This document shows positions 3,835 to 41,597 of a stretch of 64,000 nt of DNA, piece after piece; position 1 is the stretch's first letter, and every line of letters begins with the position of its first letter. Origin of the DNA: Avibacterium paragallinarum (GTDB lineage Bacteria > Pseudomonadota > Gammaproteobacteria > Enterobacterales > Pasteurellaceae); NCBI RefSeq assembly GCF_900450705.1, contig NZ_UGHK01000001.1, positions 434,001 to 498,000 on the forward strand, read 5' to 3'. The notes below the pieces were generated by a model. That model searched no databases. It saw only the letters and a list, made by a program, of their open reading frames with translations, and was not told the DNA's origin. The position numbers and the translations under genes are program-made.

Positions 3835-3846
3835 ATGCCGTCTGAA
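3835..3846 (+). repeat. Neisserial DNA uptake sequence ATGCCGTCTGAA
   Basis: An exact copy of the 12-bp AT-DUS of Neisseria lies 10 bp beyond the merR stop. This word is foreign to Pasteurellaceae, which use AAGTGCGGT. It marks the neighbouring genes as probably derived from Neisseriaceae. Confidence 0.85.
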
Positions 3847-5151: not shown

Positions 5152-6429
5152 ATGAAACGTCGTGATTTTTTACTCGGCACAGGGGCATTAGCCCTTTCGC
5201 CTTATTTTTTACGCCACGCTTGAGCAGCCAATAGCGGTGCAAGCTAATATTTAATGCCGTCTGAAAGTGCTCCCCATCAAGCCACTTGGATGGCATATGG
5301 TGCAACAGCAGGTGCGTGGGGGACGACAGGCGTGTACGGAATGGCACGCCGTGCGGCTCGAGCGGATTTAATGCGAATCGCCGCCAACCTTTCCCGTTTT
5401 GAACCCGTGAATATGCTGGTGAACCCCAATGAAATGGAGGAAGCCCGTGCGGTGTTGGCACAGGTGAAAGGCGAGTTGGCTCAGTCTGATTTGCGTGAAT
5501 ACAGTGCCACAGGCGTATTCACCAACGGGCGTGCCATTCCCAACATCGAAGCAGGTGGAAAAATCAACCTCATCGCCGCACCGCTCAATGATTTATGGGT
5601 ACGCGACACCGCCCCGCTATTTGTGCGTGATGAAAACGGCAAACGTGCCGCAGTGGATTTCAATTTCAACGGCTAGGGACAAGCAGACACAGGTGCACAA
5701 GGCTGGTGAAAAGACCCTGCCAAACGTGAACACGGCATTGTGGATCAGCCCATTGGAAAAGACCAAAAAATCGCTGCTTTTGTCGCCAAATACACCCACT
5801 CGCCATTAGTGAAAACCTGGCTGGTAATGGAAGGCGGCATTGAAGTGGACGGCAAAGGCAACGCCATCTGCACCGAAAGCTGCATTCTTAACGATAACCG
5901 CAACCCTAACCGCAGCAAAGCCGAAGTGGAACAAGAATTACACCGCGTGCTGGGCGTGAACAACATCACTTGGCTCAAAGGCTTAAAAGCCCGTGACATC
6001 ACCGATGCCCACATTGATTTCTACGCCCGTTTCACCGACGACAGCGTACTCTGTGCTATTGATGATGAACCCGAATCGCCTGATTATGCGGTAACCCGCG
6101 ACAATCTGCGTGTTCTCAAACAGCACCACCGCAAGGTGATTGAGCTACACGCCCCGAATTACGAAACCGTGCAAGTTGCCGTAGAAGCCCGTCAATATGG
6201 AGGCTTCCGCTTCAATGAAAACGGCTTTGCTGCAGGTTATATCGGCTTTTACGTTGCCAATGACTGCATCATCTTGCCACAATTTGGCGACCCTGATGCC
6301 CACCGTGAAGCCTTTGATATCGTCAGCCAAAGCCATCCAGACCGCACTGTGCTACAAATCGCCACAGACGGCATCGCCAACGGCGGCGGTTCAATCCACT
6401 GTGCCACCCAGCAGGAAATCCCTGAATGA
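5152..6429 (+). pseudogene. Tat-exported agmatine deiminase/peptidylarginine deiminase-family protein with four in-frame stops
   Basis: One uninterrupted reading phase of 426 codons encodes a guanidine-group-modifying deiminase. It starts with a Tat-like leader (MKRRDFLLGTGALALS). Family motifs are present: NDLWVRDTAPLFV, WLVMEGGIEVDGKG, TDAHIDFYARF and the catalytic-cysteine block GGGSIHCATQQEIP near the end. The phase is broken by TGA (5221), TAA (5245), TAG (5674) and TGA (5707), yet there is no frameshift. Each stop can arise by one C-to-T or G-to-A change. Homologues hydrolyse agmatine or peptidyl-arginine, and the periplasmic leader favours an extracytoplasmic role. Its stop overlaps the next start by ATGA. 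A neisserial DUS lies inside the frame, and the segment is more GC-rich than its flanks, so it was probably acquired. Confidence 0.85.
5254..5265 (+). repeat. Neisserial DNA uptake sequence inside the deiminase pseudogene
   Basis: An exact ATGCCGTCTGAA lies near the junction of the leader peptide and the catalytic domain. It is the second exact AT-DUS within 1.5 kb. Confidence 0.85.
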
Positions 6430-6749
6430 GCGAAGAAAAGCAAGCTAATTTCAAAGATTTACGCCAGCCGATGATCGCCTCCATCGGCATCGTAATGGGC
6501 TTTTTGCTGAACTTCCTCGCAGGCTGGGCGGCTGCAGACGATAGCCAACCTGCGGTAAATAGCCTCTCTGATTTACTCATCGCCGCCTCATTATTAGTGG
6601 GGCTGGTGATGATGCTCAGCGTGCTTTACCGCCTGCTCGCCCACCCTGAGCGAATGCAACAAGCCAGCCACTACCAAACCACCTTTCGGCTCTATTTCGC
6701 CAGCCTCATCTTAACCTTTGGCGGTTTGATTTTTGCCTTGTTTATTTGA
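6426..6749 (+). CDS. Small three-helix membrane protein of unknown function
   Basis: A 107-aa hydrophobic protein I do not recognise. Three membrane segments are visible at about residues 17-37, 48-70 and 84-106, joined by short polar loops. It overlaps the deiminase stop by 4 bp (ATGA), so the two were translationally coupled and probably cotranscribed. It may be an accessory or anchoring partner of the exported deiminase. Its frame is intact although the upstream gene is broken, so it may now be poorly translated. Confidence 0.6.
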   Translation: MSEEKQANFKDLRQPMIASIGIVMGFLLNFLAGWAAADDSQPAVNSLSDLLIAASLLVGLVMMLSVLYRLLAHPERMQQASHYQTTFRLYFASLILTFGGLIFALFI

Positions 6750-8415: not shown

Positions 8416-9321
8416 TTAAGTCAAACACCAAGGCTGTTTGGATAAATAATCTTGTAAAAAATCAATCAATAATGCCGTGCGTGGGGCAAGGGTATGGTGG
8501 CGGTAATACACGGCATAAATGGGTTGTGTGAGTGATTGGCGTAAATCAGGCAGGATTTCGACCAATTCGCCATTTTGGCGTGCGTTGTGTGTCATCATAT
8601 CCGAAAGGCATACCACACCAAGATGATTGAGTGCTAATGCCAATAGGCTTTCGCCGCTAGAGGCAGAGATATGCGGCTGTATGTCAAGCCAATGCCCTGC
8701 GTTGTCTAAAATTGGCCATTGGTTGAGGTGAGCTGGTTGACTAAAACCTAATAAACGTTGTTGGCATAATTGCTCTAGATTGTGAATGTTGCCGTGTTCA
8801 GCTAAATATTGCGGGCTAGCTAGAATACGAACGGCGGTTTTACCAAGCAAGCGGGCGTGCATGGTGGAATCTTGTAGCGTGCCAATGCGAATGGCAACAT
8901 CGGTGCGTTCCTCTAAGAGATCGATGTTTAACTCATTGCTGTTTAGCTCCAACTGGAGCTGGGGATAGCGTGGCAAAAATTCGGCGATAGCTGGAATAAG
9001 AACGTGTCGCATCACGGGGGTGGAAGTATTCACACGCAATAATCCGCTGACATCACTACGCCGAGCGAGCAGTTTTTCTTCCGCACTTTGCACACTGTCT
9101 AAAATTTGCCGTGCTTGTTGCAACAACAATTCCCCTTCATCAGTGAGGTGCATTTTTCGCGTACTGCGTTGCAATAAGGTCATTCCCAGCTCTCGTTCTA
9201 GTTTTGTCAAAGCACGGCTCACCATTGAAACAGGCTGTTCCAAACGCATTGCCGCCCCGCTAAGCGACCCGCTTTCCACGATATGAACAAAGATATTTAG
9301 GGCTTCCAGATTCAGTTTCAC
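8416..9321 (-). CDS. LysR-type transcriptional regulator
   Basis: A 301-aa LysR-family regulator. The winged helix-turn-helix occupies about residues 3-60 (LEALNIFVHIVESGSLSGAAMRLEQ, then VSRALTKLERELG and LLQRSTRKMHLTDEG), followed by a two-lobe inducer-binding domain. The closest subgroup by eye is the CrgA/YafC/DsdC-like type that controls neighbouring oxidoreductases. IS copy 1 sits 48 bp upstream of its start. If the large inversion is undone, the gene divergent to it is mdaB (now at 40142-40729), the most likely original target. Confidence 0.85.
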   Translation of the reverse strand: MKLNLEALNIFVHIVESGSLSGAAMRLEQPVSMVSRALTKLERELGMTLLQRSTRKMHLTDEGELLLQQARQILDSVQSAEEKLLARRSDVSGLLRVNTSTPVMRHVLIPAIAEFLPRYPQLQLELNSNELNIDLLEERTDVAIRIGTLQDSTMHARLLGKTAVRILASPQYLAEHGNIHNLEQLCQQRLLGFSQPAHLNQWPILDNAGHWLDIQPHISASSGESLLALALNHLGVVCLSDMMTHNARQNGELVEILPDLRQSLTQPIYAVYYRHHTLAPRTALLIDFLQDYLSKQPWCLT

Positions 9322-9369
9322 GACACGTTCCCCAACACAAAAGAATGGGCTTATTATTGCAAAAATAAA

Positions 9370-10088
9370 GGGGCTGTCCTAGATAACAACTAAAAAATCT
9401 ATTTAGGTTAGAATGAACCAATGAGAAAAAGTCGTCTAAGTCAGCACAAACAAAATAAACTCATTGAGCTATTTGTTGCAGGTGTTACTGCAAGGACAGC
9501 AGCAGAGTTAGTCAATGTAAACAAAACGACTGCCGCATATTACTTTCATCGTTTACGCCAACTCATCTATCAAAACAGCCTTCACTTAGAGATGTTTGAA
9601 GGTGAAATTGAAGCCGATGAAAGTTATTTTGGCGGTGCTCGCAAAGGCAAACGTGGTCGTGGTGCGGCAGGGAAAATTGCGGTATTCGGGCTTCTCAAGC
9701 GCAATGGCAAGGTTTATACCGTTGCGGTTCCAAATACGCAATCTGCCACCTTGTTACCCATTATTCGGGAGCAGGTAAAGCCTGATAGTATTGTTTACAC
9801 CGATAATTATCGTAGTTATGACGTGCTTGATGTGAGTGAATTTAGTCATTTTCGTATCAATCACAGCACACATTTTGCTGAAAATCATAACCACATTAAC
9901 GGAATTGAGAATTTTTGAAGCCAAGCAAAACGCCATTTACGCAAATTTAATGGTATCCCAAAAGCGCATTTTGAGCTTTATTTAAAGGAATGTGAATGGC
10001 GTTTTAATTACAGCAACATAAAAAGTCAAATTTCTATTTTAAAACAATTGGTTAAAGGGAGTTTAGTCTAGTTATCTAGGACAGCCCC
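9370..10088 (+). mobile_element. IS1016-type insertion sequence (IS1595 family), copy 1
   Basis: A 719-bp element with 18-bp perfect terminal inverted repeats, GGGGCTGTCCTAGATAAC and GTTATCTAGGACAGCCCC. The 8-bp flanks do not match each other (AAAATAAA left, TTGATCAA right), but they match the flanks of copy 4. This shows that the two copies recombined. Confidence 0.95.
9421..10071 (+). pseudogene. IS1016-type transposase, nonsense-mutated (copy 1)
   Basis: The 216-codon DDE-type transposase frame begins at the ATG after MRKSRLSQHKQ and has an N-terminal helix-turn-helix plus EADESYFGG and YTDNYRSYD catalytic blocks. A TGG to TGA change at codon 166 (9916-9918) truncates it before the last 50 residues. 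The same mutation is present in copy 2. It could still be moved in trans by the intact copies. Confidence 0.9.
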
Positions 10089-10393
10089 TTGATCAAATTA
10101 CCCCAACTGCACCGCAAACCGCTCAGCCTGTTTCTACGCCAACACTCGCACCGACACTATCGGCTTCCACATCACAAACAGGCACACCTGTTACCGCACC
10201 AATGGCAGGTACTATTTGGAAAGTGGTAGCAAGCGAAGGGCAACAAGTGGCGGAAGGCGATGTATTGCTCATTCTCGAAGCAATGAAAATGGAAACGGAA
10301 ATCCGTGCTTCGCAAGCGGGAACGGTGCAAAATATCCGCGTGAAAGCTGGTGATGCCGTTGCCGTGGGCGATACCTTATTAACCTTAGTCTAA
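10089..10393 (+). pseudogene. oadA: Oxaloacetate decarboxylase alpha subunit, 3' part (biotin carrier domain)
   Basis: One hundred codons of the C-terminus of OadA: a Pro/Thr/Ala-rich linker and then a biotinyl domain ([13 protein letters not shown], then the biotin-lysine motif EAMKMETE near 10284-10307). The frame is open from the IS edge and has lost its 5' part, which lies on the other strand at 41598-43133. The 8 bp at its start, TTGATCAA, is the target duplication shared with that part. Joining the halves gives [12 protein letters not shown] without loss. oadB follows 13 nt later, the normal order. Confidence 0.93.
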
Positions 10394-10406
10394 GTGCGGT
10401 GGAAAA

Positions 10407-11711
10407 ATGGAAAGTATTTTGTCGTTACTGCGTGGAATGGGCATTATGCACCTAGAATGGGGGCAGGCGGTGATGATTGCCGTCAGCCTGCTACTCTTGT
10501 GGCTTGCCATCGCACGCAAATTTGAACCCCTGTTATTGCTACCCATTGGCTTTGGTGGATTGCTCTCTAATATCCCTGAAGCAGGCTTAGCAATGACAGC
10601 ATTGGATAACCTTTTGCATAACGGCACAAGCCAGCAACTGGCGATAATCGCGGAGAAACTCGGCACAGTGGCAGATCCTCTCGCCATTAAGACCGCACTT
10701 AACAACGCTTTGCCGTCGGTGCAAAATGAGTTGGAAGTGATGGCAGGCGATATGGGCTATACCGCAGGTGTGCTGGCATTGTTCTATAAAGTGGCGATCG
10801 GCTATGGCGTTGCCCCGCTTATTATTTTTATGGGCGTGGGTGCGATGACGGATTTCGGTCCACTACTTGCCAACCCTCGCACCCTATTATTAGGGGCTGC
10901 CGCACAATTTGGTATTTTTGCCACCGTGCTTGGGGCGTTGGGGCTAAACTGGCTTGGCATTATCGACTTCACCCTGCCACAAGCTGCCGCAATTGGCATT
11001 ATCGGCGGGGCAGACGGCCCAACCGCCATTTACCTTGCGAGCAAACTCGCCCCCGAGTTATTAGGTGCGATTGCCGTGGCGGCGTATTCTTATATGGCAC
11101 TCGTGCCATTAATTCAGCCACCGATTATGAAAGCCCTCACTTCACAGCAAGAACGCAAAATCCGAATGGTGCAACTGCGAACCGTGAGCAATCGTGAAAA
11201 AATCCTTTTCCCGATCGTGCTATTGGTACTTGTCGCCTTGCTCTTGCCTGATGCCGCACCATTATTGGGAATGTTCTGTTTTGGCAACTTAATACGCGTC
11301 AGTGGCGTGGTGGAACGCTTGAATGACACTGCACAAAATGCCCTCATCAACATTGTTACCATTTTCCTCGGGCTTTCCGTTGGGGCAAAATTGGTGGCGG
11401 ATAAATTCCTACAACCGCAAACACTCGGCATTTTAGTGCTAGGAATGATCGCCTTTGCGATCGGCACAGCATCTGGTGTATTAATGGCGAAATTAATGAA
11501 CCGCTTTAGCAAAAATCCAATTAACCCATTAATTGGTGCAGCGGGGGTTTCTGCTGTACCAATGGCAGCACGGGTCGCTAATAAAATCGGGCTAGAAGCC
11601 GATCACCAAAACTTCCTACTAATGCACGCAATGGGTCCCAATGTCGCAGGTGTTATTGGATCTGCCATCGCAGCAGGGGTAATGTTGAAATATATTTCAG
11701 CAATGATGTGA
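10407..11711 (+). CDS. oadB: Oxaloacetate decarboxylase beta subunit (Na+ pump)
   Basis: A 434-aa inner-membrane subunit that couples decarboxylation of carboxybiotin to Na+ export. It has nine or more membrane helices and the invariant helix-IV region [11 protein letters not shown] near residues 198-208, whose Asp is essential for Na+ transport. A second conserved block is [18 protein letters not shown] near residue 370. The gene is intact, but its promoter and the alpha/gamma subunits are now 31 kb away because of the IS inversion. It is probably silent or driven from the IS edge. Confidence 0.93.
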
Positions 11712-11720
11712 TATAAAAGA

Positions 11721-11756
11721 AATAAAGCCAACTTTTATTTTAAGTGGCTTTATTTC
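11721..11756 (+). terminator. Terminator after oadB
   Basis: AATAAAGCCA-ACTT pairs with AAGT-GGCTTTATT around a TTATTTT loop, and the 3' arm runs into TATTT. It marks the original end of the oad operon. Confidence 0.7.
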
Positions 11757-11827
11757 TCGTTATAGAATTATCAAAATATAACTAAAGTTATTTCTCCTAC
11801 CTCGTATCACTTTGCATAGCCTAACAA

Positions 11828-12586
11828 CTAACCTAGAATCAACTCAATCTTCCTTTCCCGAATGGCGGTTTGGGCATTATCCAATAAATCTTTATCGCAA
11901 ATAATGCTATCGAATTGTTCCAAGGCACAAATATGAAAAGTGGCACTTTTGCCATATTTCGAGGAATCGGAAACCAGCACCTTTTTTTGGCTCGATTGTA
12001 AAATCGCCCGTTTGACAGGCAGCTTGCTTTCATCGGGGGTGGTGAGCCCTTTTAGATTCCACGATGACGTTGAGATAAAGGCAATATCAATCGAAAGCTG
12101 TCTTAAGAGTTGGGCGGCGAGTTCGCCAACAGAGGAGTAATTGGCTTTGTTCACCGTTCCGCCGCAATGAATAAGGCGGCATTGTCCGTTTTTCATTAGA
12201 AAATCTGCGATAATAAAATCATTGGTTACCACCAAGAGATCTTCTCTATCTGCAATTCGATGGGCGATTTCAAGTGTGGTTGTGCCTGCATCTAAATAGA
12301 TTGTGGTGTTTTGGGGAATAGATTGTGCTGCGAACGCCCCGATCTTTTCTTTTTGCAAGGTGGAAAGCAAGGATTTTGCATTATGCGTTAGTTCATCGGA
12401 TAAATGTTCCAACAATTTCACCCCGCCAGACACAGATACCACCCGCCCTTCTTGCTCCAATTTTTGAATATCGCGGCGAACGGTCATATGCGATACGCCC
12501 AATAACTCCACCAACTGCGTAATACTAATGATGTGGTGCTGGCGGATAAGGTTCAGTAATTGCTTTTGTCGCTCTGCTGGGATCAT
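11828..12586 (-). CDS. DeoR/GlpR-family regulator of the ketotetronate operon
   Basis: A 252-aa repressor-type protein. The DeoR helix-turn-helix is at residues 6-57 (ERQKQLLNLIRQHHIISITQ, SHMTVRRDIQKLE), and the sugar-phosphate-binding domain has the DAGTTTLEIA motif near residue 97. It corresponds in position to HI1009 of H. influenzae and to YgbI of E. coli, both next to the same catabolic genes. It is divergent from ltnD. A 29-bp palindrome in the intergenic region is the likely operator. The effector is probably a tetronate or its phosphate. Confidence 0.88.
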   Translation of the reverse strand: MIPAERQKQLLNLIRQHHIISITQLVELLGVSHMTVRRDIQKLEQEGRVVSVSGGVKLLEHLSDELTHNAKSLLSTLQKEKIGAFAAQSIPQNTTIYLDAGTTTLEIAHRIADREDLLVVTNDFIIADFLMKNGQCRLIHCGGTVNKANYSSVGELAAQLLRQLSIDIAFISTSSWNLKGLTTPDESKLPVKRAILQSSQKKVLVSDSSKYGKSATFHICALEQFDSIICDKDLLDNAQTAIRERKIELILG

Positions 12587-34780: not shown

Positions 34781-34820
34781 AAAGTGCGGTGAAAAATAAA
34801 CGAATTTTTTACCGCACTTT
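34781..34820. terminator. Inverted uptake-signal hairpin between pepD and res
   Basis: AAAGTGCGGT and ACCGCACTTT form a 10-bp stem at the convergent ends of pepD and the restriction gene. Confidence 0.65.
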
Positions 34821-34851: not shown

Positions 34852-37476
34852 TTATGGCTTTATTCTATTGCTTTTATACACTAGTTCCGCAACATTCTTA
34901 ACGACCTGATAATCTAAATCAGGTGTATCAGAATTCAGACAATGGAAATTTTTACGCGCATAGGCAATTTTCATTTGCTCGCTTTCGCGTAATTTTTCTT
35001 CTGCTACACCGCGTTGAATGCCGTTGTCTGTGTTTTTGGTTTCTGCCACAAAATAGATTTTGCTTTCACCTTTAAACACCACTGCCCAATCTGGGTTGTA
35101 ATGGCCTAATGGGGTAGGGATTTTAAATTTTTCAGGCAGCTTAAAATAAAATTCCACTTCTTCGCTGGTTTCACAATCTTTAGCAAATTGATATTCGGTT
35201 TGGGAATCTAGCGGAATATAGTTTTTATAAATGGTTTTTTGTTTTTCTGCCACTTCAAAAGTGTGATCATTTTTAAAAAATTCAAAATCCTGAAATAGCG
35301 TCATTGCATAGGTTTTACCGGTGATTTTTCGGTATTCCACGCCCTCTGCCATGATTTGTTGTAACGCAAGGTTGATTTTTTCGGCAACCAAATCAATAAA
35401 CTGTTGTGGATTATGGAAAACTTCGGGCAGCCTTTGCGATTGTTGCAAAATCTGGCATAAGCTTATTCGCGTTAATCCTGTTTTGTTTTGCAAGGCATTG
35501 AGCAGGTCAGGAATATGGAATGAAGCACGCACATTGGTTGCCCCTGTTGAGCGATATTGTGTGCTTATGCCTTGTTCATTGATGGTTAAATGGGCTTTTT
35601 CGTGGCGGATTTGTATCGCTTCAATAGGCGGCATTTTGCGAATTTTTTCCACCGCACTTTTAATTAACTCTTGTTGTTCAAACTTCACCCGATAAGTGGT
35701 TTGATACTGAATACGTTCCCACAGTGCTTGAAAATTGGGGTGTAGGCTAAAATCTTTGCGATATTGAACCCGTTTTTTATCTTCACGTTTTTTGATATTG
35801 CTCTTGGCAAACTGCACGCCGCATTCTTCTTCAATTTCACGCTGAAGGCTGGTGGCAAATTGTTCATAGCTTTCATTGGCAATCACGGTAAGGATATTTT
35901 GGCGGCGATCATAAATCCGTTGCCCCTGCTGATTCACAGGCAGCCTTAATCCACGCCCGATTTCTTGGCGTTTTTTTATTTCGCTGGCGGTATCGTTTAA
36001 GGTGCAAATCTGAAACACATTCGGATTGTCCCAGCCCTCTTTTAATGCGGAATGAGAAAAAATAAACCGCAACGGATTGTTTACATCCAATAGCCGTTCT
36101 TTATCTTTCATAATCAGGCGATAAGTGTCGTTATCCGCTTGTGTGCTGCCGTTGGTGTCTTTGGCATTGCCTTTTTTGTCTTGAGAAAAATAGCCATTAT
36201 GCACGCCTTGCGGATCGCTGCCTGAAAGCTCGCGGTAAATGGCATCAAACCATTGGGCGAATTTACCGCCATTGCGGTAATTATCTACTTTGTCGATAAA
36301 AAACAGAGAAAGCACTTTAATGCCTTGCTCACGCAATTTTTTCTCTTTTTGCAAATGCTCGGCAATGGTGCGGCGGATTTGCATTTGCTGAATTTCGTCT
36401 TTTAATTGGGAATAATCCGTTCCTTGATAAATTTCCACGCCATTAGCAAAGGAAACCATTTTTTGTTCGGTATCCATTCCGCTCAAAATAAAGCCATTGC
36501 GGTATTGTTCATTTTGATTGGAAAGCTCGAATAAATCTTGATTGGGCTTGACGGTGATGGCTTTTTTCTTCATCGCCTTTTTGTCGTTCACCAATAATTC
36601 AATTTTGGCTGACCAGCTTTTTTTGCCCGTTTTGATTTCTTTCAGCGATAAATACACCCCATTTAAATCATTGTTTGCCAGTACGCAGTCCACCTCAATT
36701 TGCTTCACCAAGCCCAATTCGTAGGCTTGCACGGGATTGAGGCTGTAAACAGGGTTGTAGGCATTTTTATGCGTGGCGGAATAACGCAAGGTAAACAATG
36801 GGTTTAAACTTTCAATCGCTTTACGGCGGGTTTCAGTTTCCATATTTTGCGGTTCATCAATAATCACAATGGGCGATGCCGTCTGAATATATTCAATCGG
36901 GGCAATGCCACTTTCTCGAACCGTATTCATTACATTGTTTTCTTTCGCGAAAGAATCAATATTGATCACCAAAATATCAATATAGTTGCTTTGGGAAAAG
37001 TTTTTTAACGCCGTTAGATTGGAACTTTTATATTCATTGTATTGAACGCTGGGCTTATCAAAAACAAGGGAAAAATGATCTTGCGTAGCTGCCAAGGTGT
37101 GCAACACGCCCTCGCGAATGGCAACGCTTGGCACAACAATCACAAATTTTTGCCAGCCATATTGTTGGTTTAATTCAAAAATGGTGCGTAAATACACATA
37201 GGTTTTGCCCGTTCCCGTTTCCATTTCAACGGTAAAGTTTTTACCCTGCTCGGCAATCAAAGTGCGGTCGGTTTTTGCTTTATTTTGTTGCTCGTGTAAA
37301 TTGTTTTGCAAAACCGCTTCATTCAACTGCAAAGGGCGATTGCACCCAATGCGTTCATCATTTGGGCTGGTCAAGCCCCAAACTTCTTCTTGTGCCTTCC
37401 CTTGCCCTTTAAATAATTGAACCACCGCTTCCACGGCTTGCAATTGATAATCTAAGGTTTCAAATTGAAGTTGCAT
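34852..37476 (-). CDS. res: Type III restriction endonuclease subunit Res
   Basis: An 874-aa ATP-dependent restriction subunit. Walker A is METGTGKTYVYLRT near residues 89-102, motif II is IVIIDEPQNME, motif III is RYSATHKNA, and GWDNPNVFQI/EIGRGLRLP form motifs V-VI. The C-terminal PD-(D/E)xK nuclease is seen as PDWAVVFKG with VAETKNTD. It is somewhat shorter than the roughly 950-1000 aa of EcoP15I-type Res but has all domains. It follows mod by 10 nt in one operon. The gene contains one exact neisserial ATGCCGTCTGAA and two GCTGCCTGAA words. Confidence 0.92.
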   Translation of the reverse strand: MQLQFETLDYQLQAVEAVVQLFKGQGKAQEEVWGLTSPNDERIGCNRPLQLNEAVLQNNLHEQQNKAKTDRTLIAEQGKNFTVEMETGTGKTYVYLRTIFELNQQYGWQKFVIVVPSVAIREGVLHTLAATQDHFSLVFDKPSVQYNEYKSSNLTALKNFSQSNYIDILVINIDSFAKENNVMNTVRESGIAPIEYIQTASPIVIIDEPQNMETETRRKAIESLNPLFTLRYSATHKNAYNPVYSLNPVQAYELGLVKQIEVDCVLANNDLNGVYLSLKEIKTGKKSWSAKIELLVNDKKAMKKKAITVKPNQDLFELSNQNEQYRNGFILSGMDTEQKMVSFANGVEIYQGTDYSQLKDEIQQMQIRRTIAEHLQKEKKLREQGIKVLSLFFIDKVDNYRNGGKFAQWFDAIYRELSGSDPQGVHNGYFSQDKKGNAKDTNGSTQADNDTYRLIMKDKERLLDVNNPLRFIFSHSALKEGWDNPNVFQICTLNDTASEIKKRQEIGRGLRLPVNQQGQRIYDRRQNILTVIANESYEQFATSLQREIEEECGVQFAKSNIKKREDKKRVQYRKDFSLHPNFQALWERIQYQTTYRVKFEQQELIKSAVEKIRKMPPIEAIQIRHEKAHLTINEQGISTQYRSTGATNVRASFHIPDLLNALQNKTGLTRISLCQILQQSQRLPEVFHNPQQFIDLVAEKINLALQQIMAEGVEYRKITGKTYAMTLFQDFEFFKNDHTFEVAEKQKTIYKNYIPLDSQTEYQFAKDCETSEEVEFYFKLPEKFKIPTPLGHYNPDWAVVFKGESKIYFVAETKNTDNGIQRGVAEEKLRESEQMKIAYARKNFHCLNSDTPDLDYQVVKNVAELVYKSNRIKP
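36876..36887 (+). repeat. Neisserial DNA uptake sequence within res
   Basis: An exact ATGCCGTCTGAA lies within the coding sequence near the DEPQ motif. Further copies of GCTGCCTGAA, the core of the Simonsiella-type DUS dialect, occur at 35131-35140, 36217-36226, 37847-37856, 38003-38012 and 39272-39281. Confidence 0.8.
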
Positions 37477-37486
37477 TTTCTTCTCC

Positions 37487-39395
37487 TTAAATCACCCATA
37501 AAGCAATATTCGCATCGCTCATTTGCAATTCGGTATTTTTCTTGAATGCGTCATCACCGTTAAATAAACGATCCAGCATCACCACTTTTTGCGGTTGGCG
37601 TGCCATCACGTCATTGATTAATGGCTCATTGATTTCATTTAATATCAATGCCACTCGCTGATGGTTTTCTTCCACCCAACACACTTGATTTTCCCACCGC
37701 ACTTTTGCCGTGAGGCTAAAGCCTAAACGCAATAATAATTCATACATCATCGCCTGCGTATCAGTGTTCTCTGCCACAGGGTCGATAAACATTTGCAATT
37801 GTTTTTCTAAATCTTGTTCTGTGGGGGATTGCCATTGTTTGAAATGGCTGCCTGAAAGTTTAAAGGCTTTAAACCCCGTATCCATTGTTTTGTCGGGATA
37901 TTGCTCGGCGATTTGCTTGCCCGCACGGCGAATGCGTTCTTTGGATATTTCGGCAATAGTTTGAAAACCTGCTTTAAAGGCTTCGGATTTTTCGTCCGTT
38001 TTTTCAGGCAGCTGCACGCAAATAAAATGGCGATTGCCGCCATCTTCGGCATTGAGTTGCATTACCGCGTGAGCGGTGGTGGCAGAGCCTGCGAAGAAGT
38101 CGAGGATTAGGGTGTTTTTATCTGTTTCTGCAAAAGGAATTAGATATTTGATCAAAGAGATAGGTTTGGGGTAAGACATAATATTTTTCCCAAATAGTTT
38201 TTCAATATCTTTGGAAGCGTCTTCATTGGTACCGACTTGACATTCAGTTTTGGAGATAATATCAGATGGACGCTTAATTCTTTCTCCCTCTCTTGCATAA
38301 CGAATGGCAAATTTTTTTGTCTTGATTATAAAACTTGTACCATTATTAATTTCATTATTAACAGTTTCTTGAGTCCATTTAAATTTTCCCCGTATATTAA
38401 CATCAATGTTAGCCTTACCATTAGTTATAAATAAATCTTCTAATAGTTCAATACGGTCATATATTCCAGATTTAAAATATCCATCAAAGTTAAAATGCAC
38501 ACTATCAGAAGGGAAAATAAGTGTTCTTTCACTATTGCTTTCATTGAGTAATGGCATATCACCTCCCTCTACTACTCCTCCATTATATGTAATACCATTA
38601 ATTGATTTTTCATAGCATAGAATAAATTCATATTTTCCTCTTATTTTTTTGGATAACGCAGGTGGCGTCGCAGTTTTGTTCCATTTATATATGCCTACAA
38701 AATTCTCTTCCCCAAATACTTCATCACAAAGCAATTTCAATTGGGCTTGTTCATTATCATCAATGGAAATAAAAATCACGCCGTCATCACGCAATAAGTT
38801 TCTTGCCAAATGCAAGCGAGGCAACATCATATTGAGCCAATTGCTGTGATAATGCCCGTTTTCTTTGCTGTTTTTCACAAAGGCACGCTTAAGCTTGCCC
38901 GCTTCGTCTTTATCGCCTACTTTTTCCGCATAATCGGCTTGGCTATCGGCAAAGTTATCTTTATAGATAAAATCGTTCCCCGTGTTATAAGGCGGGTCGA
39001 TATAAATCATTTTCACAGAATTAAAATAGGATTTTTGCAGAATTTTGAGGACTTCTAGGTTTTCGCCCTCAATGAACACATTTTGCGATTGGGCAAAATC
39101 CACACTCTCCGCCTCGCAAGGGGTAAGCGTTTGTTGCGTTGGGGTTTGTAAAACCTGATAGGCTTCGGATTTTCCTGCCCAGTTGAGGGCATAACGATCC
39201 GGATTGGTGGCGATTTCGTTGGCAAACAGTTGTCTAAATTTTTCAAAATCGATTTGCTGTTCAGAAAAAATTTCAGGCAGCAAGGATTTGAGTTGCGAGA
39301 GCTGTTGCTCCCTTAACGAAAGATGGTCAAGCTGCTGTGCTGTGCTGTGCTGTGCTGTGCTGTGCTGTGCTGTGCTGTGCTGTGCTGTCAGGCAT
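37487..39395 (-). CDS. mod: Type III DNA methyltransferase Mod, phase-variable, out of frame here
   Basis: An N6-adenine methyltransferase subunit that alone methylates and together with Res restricts. Motif IV is IDPPYNTGNDF and motif I is LDFFAGSATTAHA (beta-class order), with the variable target-recognition region between them. The natural ATG is at 39393-39395 behind AAGGA and is followed by 11 copies of ACAGC. With 11 copies the frame hits TGA at 39327-39329 after 22 codons, and the main 598-codon frame lacks an ATG. With 9, 12 or any multiple of three the ATG joins the main frame (637 aa with 12). The gene is therefore switched OFF here, unless the count is a sequencing artefact. Confidence 0.9.
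39334..39388 (-). repeat. Pentanucleotide tract (ACAGC)11 in mod
   Basis: Eleven perfect copies, read GCTGT on the plus strand, begin seven bases into the mod reading frame. None of the three frames through the repeat contains a stop, so slipped-strand changes act purely as a frame switch. Confidence 0.95.
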
Positions 39396-40878: not shown

Positions 40879-41597
40879 GGGGCTGTCCTAGATAACTAGA
40901 CTAAACTCCCTTTAACCAATTGTTTTAAAATAGAAATTTGACTTTTTATGTTGCTGTAATTAAAACGCCATTCACATTCCTTTAAATAAAGCTCAAAATG
41001 CGCTTTTGGGATACCATTAAATTTGCGTAAATGGCGTTTTGCTTGGCTCCAAAAATTCTCAATTCCGTTAATGTGGTTATGATTTTCAGCAAAATGTGTG
41101 CTGTGATTGATACGAAAATGACTAAATTCACTCACATCAAGCACGTCATAACTACGATAATTATCGGTGTAAACAATACTATCAGGCTTTACCTGCTCCC
41201 GAATAATGGGTAACAAGGTGGCAGATTGCGTATTTGGAACCGCAACGGTATAAACCTTGCCATTGCGCTTGAGAAGCCCGAATACCGCAATTTTCCCTGC
41301 CGCACCACGACCACGTTTGCCTTTGCGAGCACCGCCAAAATAACTTTCATCGGCTTCAATTTCACCTTCAAACATCTCTAAGTGAAGGCTGTTTTGATAG
41401 ATGAGTTGGCATAAACGATGAAAGTAATATGCGGCAGTCGTTTTGTTTACATTGACTAACTCTGCTGCTGTCCTTGCAGTAACACCTGCAACAAATAGCT
41501 CAATGAGTTTATTTTGTTTGTGCTGACTTAGACGACTTTTTCTCATTGGTTCATTCTAACCTAAATAGATTTTTTAGTTGTTATCTAGGACAGCCCC
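40879..41597 (-). mobile_element. IS1016-type insertion sequence, copy 4
   Basis: A 719-bp element inverted relative to copy 1. Right flank TTGATCAA equals the right flank of copy 1, and left flank TTTATTTT is the reverse complement of the left flank of copy 1. Each original duplication is thus split between the two copies. Confidence 0.95.
40896..41546 (-). CDS. IS1016-type transposase, intact (copy 4)
   Basis: Full 216-aa transposase with all catalytic blocks. It differs from copies 1-3 by one Arg-to-Cys change (HRLCQLIYQ), shared only with copy 5. Confidence 0.93.
   Translation of the reverse strand: MRKSRLSQHKQNKLIELFVAGVTARTAAELVNVNKTTAAYYFHRLCQLIYQNSLHLEMFEGEIEADESYFGGARKGKRGRGAAGKIAVFGLLKRNGKVYTVAVPNTQSATLLPIIREQVKPDSIVYTDNYRSYDVLDVSEFSHFRINHSTHFAENHNHINGIENFWSQAKRHLRKFNGIPKAHFELYLKECEWRFNYSNIKSQISILKQLVKGSLV

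What the first reader, a model, noticed from the sequence alone, without database searches (positions are those of the whole stretch)
35131..39281. Neisseriaceae uptake words concentrated in the type III R-M genes
GCTGCCTGAA, the core of the Simonsiella-type DUS dialect, occurs five times in 4.2 kb (35131, 36217, 37847, 38003, 39272, both strands). ATGCCGTCTGAA occurs exactly at 36876, and AGGCAGCCTTAA at 35938 is one base from the Kingella dialect. A 10-mer should appear about once per half megabase by chance. The locus therefore probably passed through a DUS-using Neisseriaceae host. Part of the signal could come from Leu-Pro-Glu codons (CTGCCTGAA), but two copies are in the other orientation.
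Basis: partly seen in the sequence, partly recalled or inferred. Interest (0 to 1): 0.75.

Follow-up and report, generated by a model that had tools for sequence, protein, structure and literature searches.

The report
Restriction genes carrying two families' watermarks
A DNA-restriction gene pair in a Pasteurellaceae bacterium carries the DNA-uptake signals of its own family plus, on top, those of a different family (Neisseriaceae), which suggests that the genes once lived in the other family and came back.

Summary
GCTGCCTGAA occurs five times in the window, all in the type III mod-res pair, against 18 in 2.86 Mb. Leu-Pro-Glu codons do not explain it: with the proteins kept and codons redrawn, 0 of 2000 versions of either gene reach the observed count, and 5 of 7 synonymously possible sites are filled, against 4 of 159 for permuted words.

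Mod and Res are not of Neisseriaceae descent: both trees put this copy and two Gallibacterium copies in the Pasteurellaceae group; grouping Res with the Neisseriaceae rows is rejected (p-AU 4e-18); the best Res in 83 Neisseriaceae genomes is 57% identical. Three Pasteurellaceae uptake words sit at the same sites in most Pasteurellaceae copies, so they are older and the neisserial words were laid over them. A second R-M locus of this genome carries the same words; both loci are shared with Gallibacterium at 92-95% DNA identity.

Best reading: a Pasteurellaceae R-M pair lived for a time in an unsampled Neisseriaceae and came back. Published modA genes also carry both kinds of word (PMC3311624), so this is a new member of a known kind.

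The parts
34852..37476 (-). res: type III restriction subunit, 874 aa (helicase and endonuclease domains)
   Evidence: Pfam ResIII PF04851 and RE_endonuc PF19778 above cut-off
37487..39283 (-). mod: DNA methyltransferase, from the TTG that the ORF tool chose; the variable recognition region is about residues 228-367
   Evidence: Pfam N6_N4_Mtase PF01555; residues 228-367 are at most 22% identical in the 32 relatives aligned
39333..39388 (-). (CAGCA)11 repeat after the likely ATG of mod; in this assembly the ATG frame runs into a stop, so mod reads phase-OFF unless another start is used
   Evidence: arrays of the same unit stand before mod in L041, L042, L045, L047, L048, L049
35131..35140 (-). 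GCTGCCTGAA in res (KLPEK); also in Gallibacterium gsp. 1, GCTACCTGAA in G. anatis
36217..36226 (+). GCTGCCTGAA, antisense in res (LSGS); in all three clade copies. The Neisseria relative L053 has GCCGTCTGAA at the same place and orientation
36876..36887 (+). ATGCCGTCTGAA (AT-DUS), antisense in res; the 10-mer is also in Gallibacterium gsp. 1, absent in G. anatis
37847..37856 (+). GCTGCCTGAA, antisense in mod (LSGS); in all three clade copies
38003..38012 (-). GCTGCCTGAA in mod (QLPEK); TTG codon in Gallibacterium gsp. 1, GCTACCTGAA in G. anatis
39272..39281 (-). GCTGCCTGAA in mod (LLPEIF); CTT codon in G. anatis, not covered in Gallibacterium gsp. 1
35422..35433 (-). AGGCTGCCCGAA, one base from the full AG-simDUS; the 10-mer is exact at this site in Gallibacterium gsp. 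1
35651..35659 (-). Pasteurellaceae USS AAGTGCGGT in res; site filled in 13 of 17 Pasteurellaceae copies
37260..37268 (+). Pasteurellaceae USS AAGTGCGGT in res; site filled in 13 of 17 Pasteurellaceae copies
37696..37704 (-). Pasteurellaceae USS AAGTGCGGT in mod; site filled in 12 of 17 copies, 13 with L017, where the spacing differs

Best explanation
[quoted passage not shown] The older layer is the Pasteurellaceae USS, at sites shared by most Pasteurellaceae copies. The younger layer is neisserial, chiefly the Simonsiella-type word. The younger layer most likely built up while an ancestor of this copy and the Gallibacterium copies lived in a naturally transformable Neisseriaceae that uses the sim dialect, where biased uptake and recombination favour alleles that hold the word. 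The pair then returned to a Pasteurellaceae, where the neisserial words may now be eroding, and was exchanged between Gallibacterium and this genome together with a second R-M locus that carries the same words. Shown: the words, their excess over codon expectation, the trees, the shared USS sites, the sharing with Gallibacterium. Inferred: the stay in Neisseriaceae, the drive that installs words, erosion, and the direction of the last transfer.
For: Excess over protein-preserving nulls: Mod 3 and Res 2 sim words against means of 0.006-0.018, 0 of 2000 under each of two nulls. 5 of 7 possible sim sites filled; control words eik 0 of 6 and apl 0 of 2; permuted words 4 of 159. 51 other ORFs of the window that I picked hold 1 DUS-type word in 46.9 kb, null 0.24. 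The Neisseria relative L053 fills 6 of 6 possible DUS sites in res; four other Pasteurellaceae res genes fill 2 of 2, 2 of 2, 2 of 2 and 2 of 3 hin sites and no DUS-type site. LSGS at two sim sites occurs only in the three clade copies among the rows shown. At one of them L053 has a DUS in the same place. Trees. USS sites. Sharing: own res is 93.5% and 92.4% identical in DNA to the Gallibacterium copies, four-fold differences 34/279 and 51/276; the second locus is 95.4% identical over 4045 bases; PepD is 55-57% identical in protein. None of 6 same-genus genomes has the Res. 13 of 83 Neisseriaceae genomes hold more than 800 copies of the word.
Against: No Neisseriaceae copy of this clade was found: best 57% in 83 genomes, all 277 plasmid records under 60%, best 50% in 65 viral-contig loci; metagenomes could not be searched. 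AG extension 0 of 5, though the protein forbids it there. The USSs are intact, which is odd after a long stay in a host that does not maintain them. Six of the clade's seven word sites have no word at the same place in the Neisseria rows; only res 1250 does. With three copies, parsimony cannot tell loss from gain at three sites. For the second locus no tree was built and its USS sites were not compared.
Confidence: 0.5

Rival explanations
1. The pair shuttles repeatedly between both families by natural transformation and keeps both kinds of word because each is renewed in turn: a bilingual passenger rather than one round trip.
For: Both layers are nearly complete at once: sim 5 of 7, DUS 1 of 1, hin 3 of 4 possible sites; the second locus has sim 4 of 4, kin 2 of 2, DUS 2 of 3, hin 2 of 3. 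PMC3311624 reports both kinds of word at modA and links them to frequent exchange (passages).
Against: No neisserial copy of the clade was found. The differences among the three copies are single changes that can be decay.
Confidence: 0.2
2. Mosaic: short tracts of Neisseriaceae mod-res genes recombined into a Pasteurellaceae copy and brought words with them, without a stay of the whole pair in another host.
For: At res 1250 the Neisseria relative L053 has a DUS at the same place and orientation, in shared flanking codons. In 2 of 42 windows (residues 381-440) the clade is closer to a Neisseria row (78 and 76%) than to any of 13 other Pasteurellaceae rows (71 and 72%).
Against: A DNA tree of residues 359-439 still puts the clade with the Pasteurellaceae rows, 97/94 with an unsettled bootstrap. 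The other 40 windows show no such tract, and the other word sites have no neisserial word at the same place. L053 has the AT-DUS core there, not the sim word.
Confidence: 0.1
3. The clade is native to an unsampled Neisseriaceae lineage, and the USSs were regained at the few sites that the protein allows after transfer to Pasteurellaceae.
For: The clade is sister to the other Pasteurellaceae rows on a long stem (0.21 in Res), with 84/95 for the rest. Only 4 hin sites are possible in own Mod+Res, so regain would fall on the same places.
Against: The residues under the USSs (KVR, RTL, SAV) are shared with most Pasteurellaceae rows and differ in the Neisseriaceae rows. Holding the clade with the Neisseriaceae rows is rejected for Res.
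Confidence: 0.06
4. The words were gained in some other host that uses DUS-like words, outside Neisseriaceae.
For: Three Cardiobacteriaceae rows also carry such words: C. valvarum (kin, DUS, king3 in res, eik in mod), L063 and Rappaport israeli (sim and kin).
Against: These genomes hold only 15, 16 and 11 GCTGCCTGAA, and the Gallibacterium genomes 20 and 12, so none of them uses the word.
Confidence: 0.1
5. Codon coincidence: conserved Leu-Pro-Glu and Ser-Gly-Ser motifs happen to be spelled with the same codons.
For: All five words encode LPE or SGS in one frame. LPE recurs in Mod relatives, and one (L017) spells it CTGCCTGAA, though after an A.
Against: 0 of 2000 codon versions for each gene. 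Most relatives with LPE spell it otherwise. The word is in excess in the second locus as well.
Confidence: 0.04

Closest known systems
ModA type III methyltransferases of Haemophilus influenzae and pathogenic Neisseria (PMC3311624; passages read)
   Same: Phase-variable type III mod exchanged between the two families; neisserial uptake words reported at the gene there, Haemophilus ones in the earlier study it cites; recognition domain swapped as a block.
   Different: Here a mod with a (CAGCA)n repeat, the Simonsiella-type word in place of GCCGTCTGAA (one copy of the latter), words in the conserved parts of both mod and res, and copies in Gallibacterium. I did not compare this Mod with ModA directly.
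ICEs with AG-king/simDUS dyads in gonococci and meningococci (PMC7371117; passages read)
   Same: A foreign uptake dialect used as a mark of transfer.
   Different: There transfer is within Neisseriaceae and the elements are conjugative; here a gene pair sits in another family and the window words are single. Dyads do occur in the second R-M locus.
simDUS of Simonsiella muelleri (PMC3630211; abstract and the section on dialects read)
   Same: The 10-mer core.
   Different: No AG extension on the five window words, and the word is not abundant in this genome.
Nicoletella semolina Res (L058, same place as L027)
   Same: A Pasteurellaceae Res with DUS-type words (3).

Membership tests
Type III restriction-modification system | Mod with N6/N4 methylase domain next to Res with helicase and endonuclease domains | tested here: met
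Type III restriction-modification system | ATP-dependent cleavage that needs two inversely oriented sites (recalled) | not testable with these tools
   needs biochemistry
Phase-variable mod (phasevarion gene) | Simple sequence repeat near the start that shifts the frame | tested here: met
   (CAGCA)11 after the ATG, frame closed in this assembly
Phase-variable mod (phasevarion gene) | Switching alters expression of other genes | not testable with these tools
   needs expression data
Neisseriaceae DUS, sim dialect | Exact 10-mer core | tested here: met
   5 exact
Neisseriaceae DUS, sim dialect | AG extension of the 12-mer | tested here: not met
   0 of 5
Neisseriaceae DUS, sim dialect | Hundreds to thousands of copies in the genome that uses it | tested here: not met
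   18 in 2.86 Mb: not this host's own uptake word
Neisseriaceae DUS, sim dialect | Promotes DNA uptake | not testable with these tools
   needs an uptake assay
R-M pair of Neisseriaceae descent | Mod and Res nest among Neisseriaceae | tested here: not met
R-M pair of Pasteurellaceae descent | Mod and Res group with Pasteurellaceae and share USS sites with them | tested here: met
   exact place within the group open (84/95)

The most novel reading that the evidence does not exclude
R-M genes are bilingual passengers: their coding sequence has been driven to nearly full occupancy by the uptake words of two bacterial families at once, so that free DNA carrying them is taken up by both, and natural transformation works as a two-family highway for defence genes, readable as ordered layers of words.
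Probability: 0.2. Interest if true: 0.7.

Novelty: new member of a known kind. Interest (0 to 1): 0.47.

Why it matters
Uptake words usually keep transformation within a family. A gene pair with two layers of words in a readable order lets one reconstruct a route between families that gene trees alone would miss, since here the trees say only Pasteurellaceae. It also offers a simple measure, the share of synonymously possible sites that are filled, which separated word dialects sharply in the few genes tried here.

Tried and rejected
Leu-Pro-Glu codon coincidence: rejected by codon nulls and permuted words. Neisseriaceae descent: rejected by trees and, for Res, the AU test. A plasmid or viral carrier: no relative of 60% or more in plasmids, best 50% in viral contigs. 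A link to the nearby IS1595-family element, which also lies near the second locus: it has at least 40 copies in the genome (40 of 118 candidates were scored), so its nearness says nothing. Neisseriaceae DNA around the other two AT-DUS words (3835, 5254): best match 67% over 400 bases, so no recent import is shown. The near-match at 35938: given no weight. Naming the host genus: not settled. A search for modP with GCACA repeats gave nothing of use.

Literature searches: in open PubMed Central papers only; among the titles and abstract starts listed I saw none on DUS in Gallibacterium R-M genes (two searches named Gallibacterium: one search gave 2 papers, none). Kroll 1998 (PNAS) is not held and is known here only through citations and recall.
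Full report
What was claimed and what is there. The five GCTGCCTGAA words are at the stated coordinates and nowhere else in the 64 kb. The AT-DUS at 36876 is exact, and two more lie at 3835 and 5254. The window is from a Pasteurellaceae genome: it is in one family with genomes whose contigs match named Gallibacterium, Mannheimia and Aggregatibacter records, and AAGTGCGGT, 48 copies in 64 kb, is its commonest 9-mer. The genome has 2,860,434 bases in 3 contigs and 18 GCTGCCTGAA: 5 here, 4 in a second locus at C2:1108049-1111457, 9 elsewhere. GCCGTCTGAA occurs 13 times, 1 here, 2 in the second locus and 2 elsewhere in the window.

What the locus encodes. res (34852-37476) has ResIII and RE_endonuc domains and mod (37487-39283) an N6_N4 methylase domain: a type III R-M pair. 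mod probably starts upstream at an ATG followed by (CAGCA)11 at 39333-39388; in this assembly that frame meets a stop, so mod reads as phase-OFF unless another start is used. The second locus holds a methylase (L009 6629-8551) and a ResIII helicase (8552-11857), preceded by an ORF (5379-6668) without a Pfam match.

Is it more than chance? All five words encode LPE or SGS in the same frame, so I kept the proteins fixed. With codons drawn from other window ORFs, or the gene's own codons shuffled, null means were 0.009 and 0.018 for Mod (3 words) and 0.006 and 0.018 for Res (2 words), and 0 of 2000 reached the observed count each time; the one AT-DUS in Res has P 0.02-0.03. Of the sites where the word can be written without changing the protein, 5 of 7 are filled; for 400 letter-permuted words it is 4 of 159. 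AT-DUS fills 1 of 1 and hin USS 3 of 4; eik fills 0 of 6 and apl 0 of 2. A caution: a filled site makes itself possible, so the fraction flatters any word that is present; the permuted words share that condition. In 300 shuffles the most frequent 10-mer reached 4 in 5 cases and never 5; in other stretches of the window the words listed at five or more are the USS. In 51 other ORFs of the window (46.9 kb) there is 1 of the six DUS-type words, null 0.24.

Where the genes belong. In 140 family genomes (49 with a match) Res is 93% and 92% identical in two genomes of genus g16, then 75% or less. Named records show these two to be Gallibacterium genomosp. 1 and G. anatis. None of the 6 same-genus genomes has a match, and the alignment with the region beyond their pepD stops at 34797 in one and 34820 in five. 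In 83 Neisseriaceae genomes (32 with a match) the best Res is 57%. The Res tree (34 rows) places the window copy and the two Gallibacterium copies with 14 other Pasteurellaceae rows at 100/100, apart from 10 rows that hold the Neisseriaceae, some Cardiobacteriaceae, a Moraxella and Nicoletella. The Mod tree without the recognition region (33 rows, several of them partial) agrees at 95/100. Holding the three copies with those 10 rows costs 64 log-likelihood units, p-AU 4e-18; the group was named after the tree was seen. The clade sits at the base of the Pasteurellaceae group, with modest support for the rest (84/95), so its exact place is open.

The order of the two layers. In gene coordinates the USS near -228 is found in 12 of 17 Pasteurellaceae copies (13 with L017, where the spacing differs), that near 205 in 13 and that near 1815 in 13. 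The residues beneath them (KVR, RTL, SAV) are shared by most Pasteurellaceae rows and differ in the Neisseriaceae rows, so these USSs are ancestral. DUS-type words: of the same 17 Res genes, the window copy has 3, Gallibacterium gsp. 1 has 4, G. anatis 2, 12 have none, L016 has one king3 word at chance level, and Nicoletella, which nests among Neisseriaceae, has 3; of 11 more distant type III Res genes of the family, 4 have words (2, 1, 3 and 1; shuffle P 0.000, 0.137, 0.000, 0.037) and 7 none. LSGS at res 1250 and mod 1427 is seen only in the three copies; two Neisseria rows, L052 and L053, have LSG or LSDG at the first. Other sites differ by single changes among the three: mod 1271 is CTG, TTG and CTA, res 2336 CTG, CTG and CTA, res 589 is absent in G. 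anatis, res 2045 is intact only in Gallibacterium gsp. 1. By parsimony the common ancestor had three sim words and one AT-DUS; three further sites are undecided. Decay is likely but not proved.

Comparison with neisserial words. Mapped on the window's coordinates, words in the Neisseria rows fall mostly elsewhere (res 203, 646, 856, 1306, 1813, 2041). One site is shared: L053 has GCCGTCTGAA at res 1250, same orientation, with shared flanking codons. Around it, in 2 of 42 windows (residues 381-440), the clade is closer to a Neisseria row than to any of 13 other Pasteurellaceae rows, yet a DNA tree of the stretch keeps it with Pasteurellaceae (97/94, bootstrap not settled). This is a hint of local exchange, no more. 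The place where Pasteurellaceae have the USS near 1815 carries a DUS in L052 and L053: each family fills the same permissive spot with its own word.

The second R-M locus. Its res is 97% identical in protein to Gallibacterium genomosp. 1, then 77% or less in Pasteurellaceae (16 of 140 genomes with a match) and 58% at best in Neisseriaceae (4 of 83). It fills sim 4 of 4, kin 2 of 2, DUS 2 of 3 and hin 2 of 3 possible sites. In DNA it is 95.4% identical to Gallibacterium over 4045 bases; res of the first pair is 93.5% and 92.4%. PepD, a neighbouring gene, is only 55-57% identical in protein between the two genera. Both loci were therefore exchanged recently between these genera; in Gallibacterium the first pair lies beside a glutamyl-tRNA synthetase-like gene (named by eye), here between pepD and an acetyltransferase-like gene. 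Which genus gave is not shown. No tree was built for this locus.

Against the reading. No host that could have given the words has a close copy in what was searched. The full word is AG-GCTGCCTGAA; AG stands before 84 of 155, 62 of 92, 27 of 40 and 3 of 12 coding words in four users, here before 0 of 5 and 2 of 4 in the second locus (contexts). The present protein forbids AG at all five window sites, which takes most of the force from this. If the genes stayed long in a Neisseriaceae, the intact USSs need retention or regain at the few allowed sites. Shuttling explains both layers and stays a serious rival.

Context. DUS-type words also occur in other Pasteurellaceae type III genes, in R-M genes of three Cardiobacteriaceae whose genomes hold only 11-16 sim words, and in long stretches of some Pasteurellaceae genomes that I picked because words cluster there (G002, G007, G010, G023), many of them as dyads. 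So neisserial words reach these families in more places than this locus.

What is known. PMC3311624 (passages) reports neisserial uptake sequences at modA, Haemophilus ones from an earlier study, and transfer between the two genera, citing Kroll 1998 (not held). PMC7371117 (passages) uses king/sim words to find ICEs and suggests the same for Pasteurellaceae. PMC3630211 (abstract and one section) defines the dialects. Against these the present case is a new member: another word dialect, words in res as well, an order of layers, and two loci in one genome. Literature searches.

Noticed in passing
L009:5379-11857 (genome C2:1105378-1111856): A second R-M locus of this genome with 4 sim, 2 king and 2 AT-DUS-core words, shared with Gallibacterium genomosp. 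1 at 95.4% DNA identity over 4045 bases.
   Followed up: partly
window 3835 and 5254: Two more exact ATGCCGTCTGAA, by a MerR regulator/cation efflux pair and at the start codon of a PAD_porph-domain (agmatine-deiminase-like) gene that is split into two ORFs (5254-5676, 5740-6429); no close Neisseriaceae DNA match.
   Followed up: partly
window 40896-41546: IS1595-family transposase gene with at least 40 near-identical copies in the genome; 78.8% DNA identity to a stretch in two Neisseria gonorrhoeae records.
   Followed up: partly
L120-L121 (G002:C2:183001-223000), L122 (G007:C1:985000-1000000), L126, L127: Stretches of other Pasteurellaceae genomes dense in DUS, sim and king words, many as dyads; L122 has neither kind of USS in 15 kb. 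By eye they carry metabolic, transport and R-M-like genes (no family search).
   Followed up: partly
L058 (Nicoletella semolina): Res of this Pasteurellaceae nests among Neisseriaceae rows and carries king and DUS words: a plain one-way transfer.
   Followed up: partly
L063 and L095 (Cardiobacteriaceae): Their R-M genes carry several sim and king words, some as dyads, though their genomes hold only 16 and 11 sim words: a third family with neisserial words in these genes.
   Followed up: no
res 1817 site, window 35651: The spot that holds a USS in most Pasteurellaceae copies holds a DUS in the Neisseria rows L052 and L053: two families writing their own word at one permissive place.
   Followed up: no
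L041 2116 and 4988: In the G. anatis copy two LPE sites read GCTACCTGAA, the Eikenella-type word, both by CTG/CTA; G202, a sim user, also holds some of this word (17 against 161 sim in 180 kb).
   Followed up: no
window, several places: The 12-mer CTGTCCTAGATA occurs 10 times and AACGCCATT 15 times, perhaps ends of an insertion element and a local repeat.
   Followed up: no
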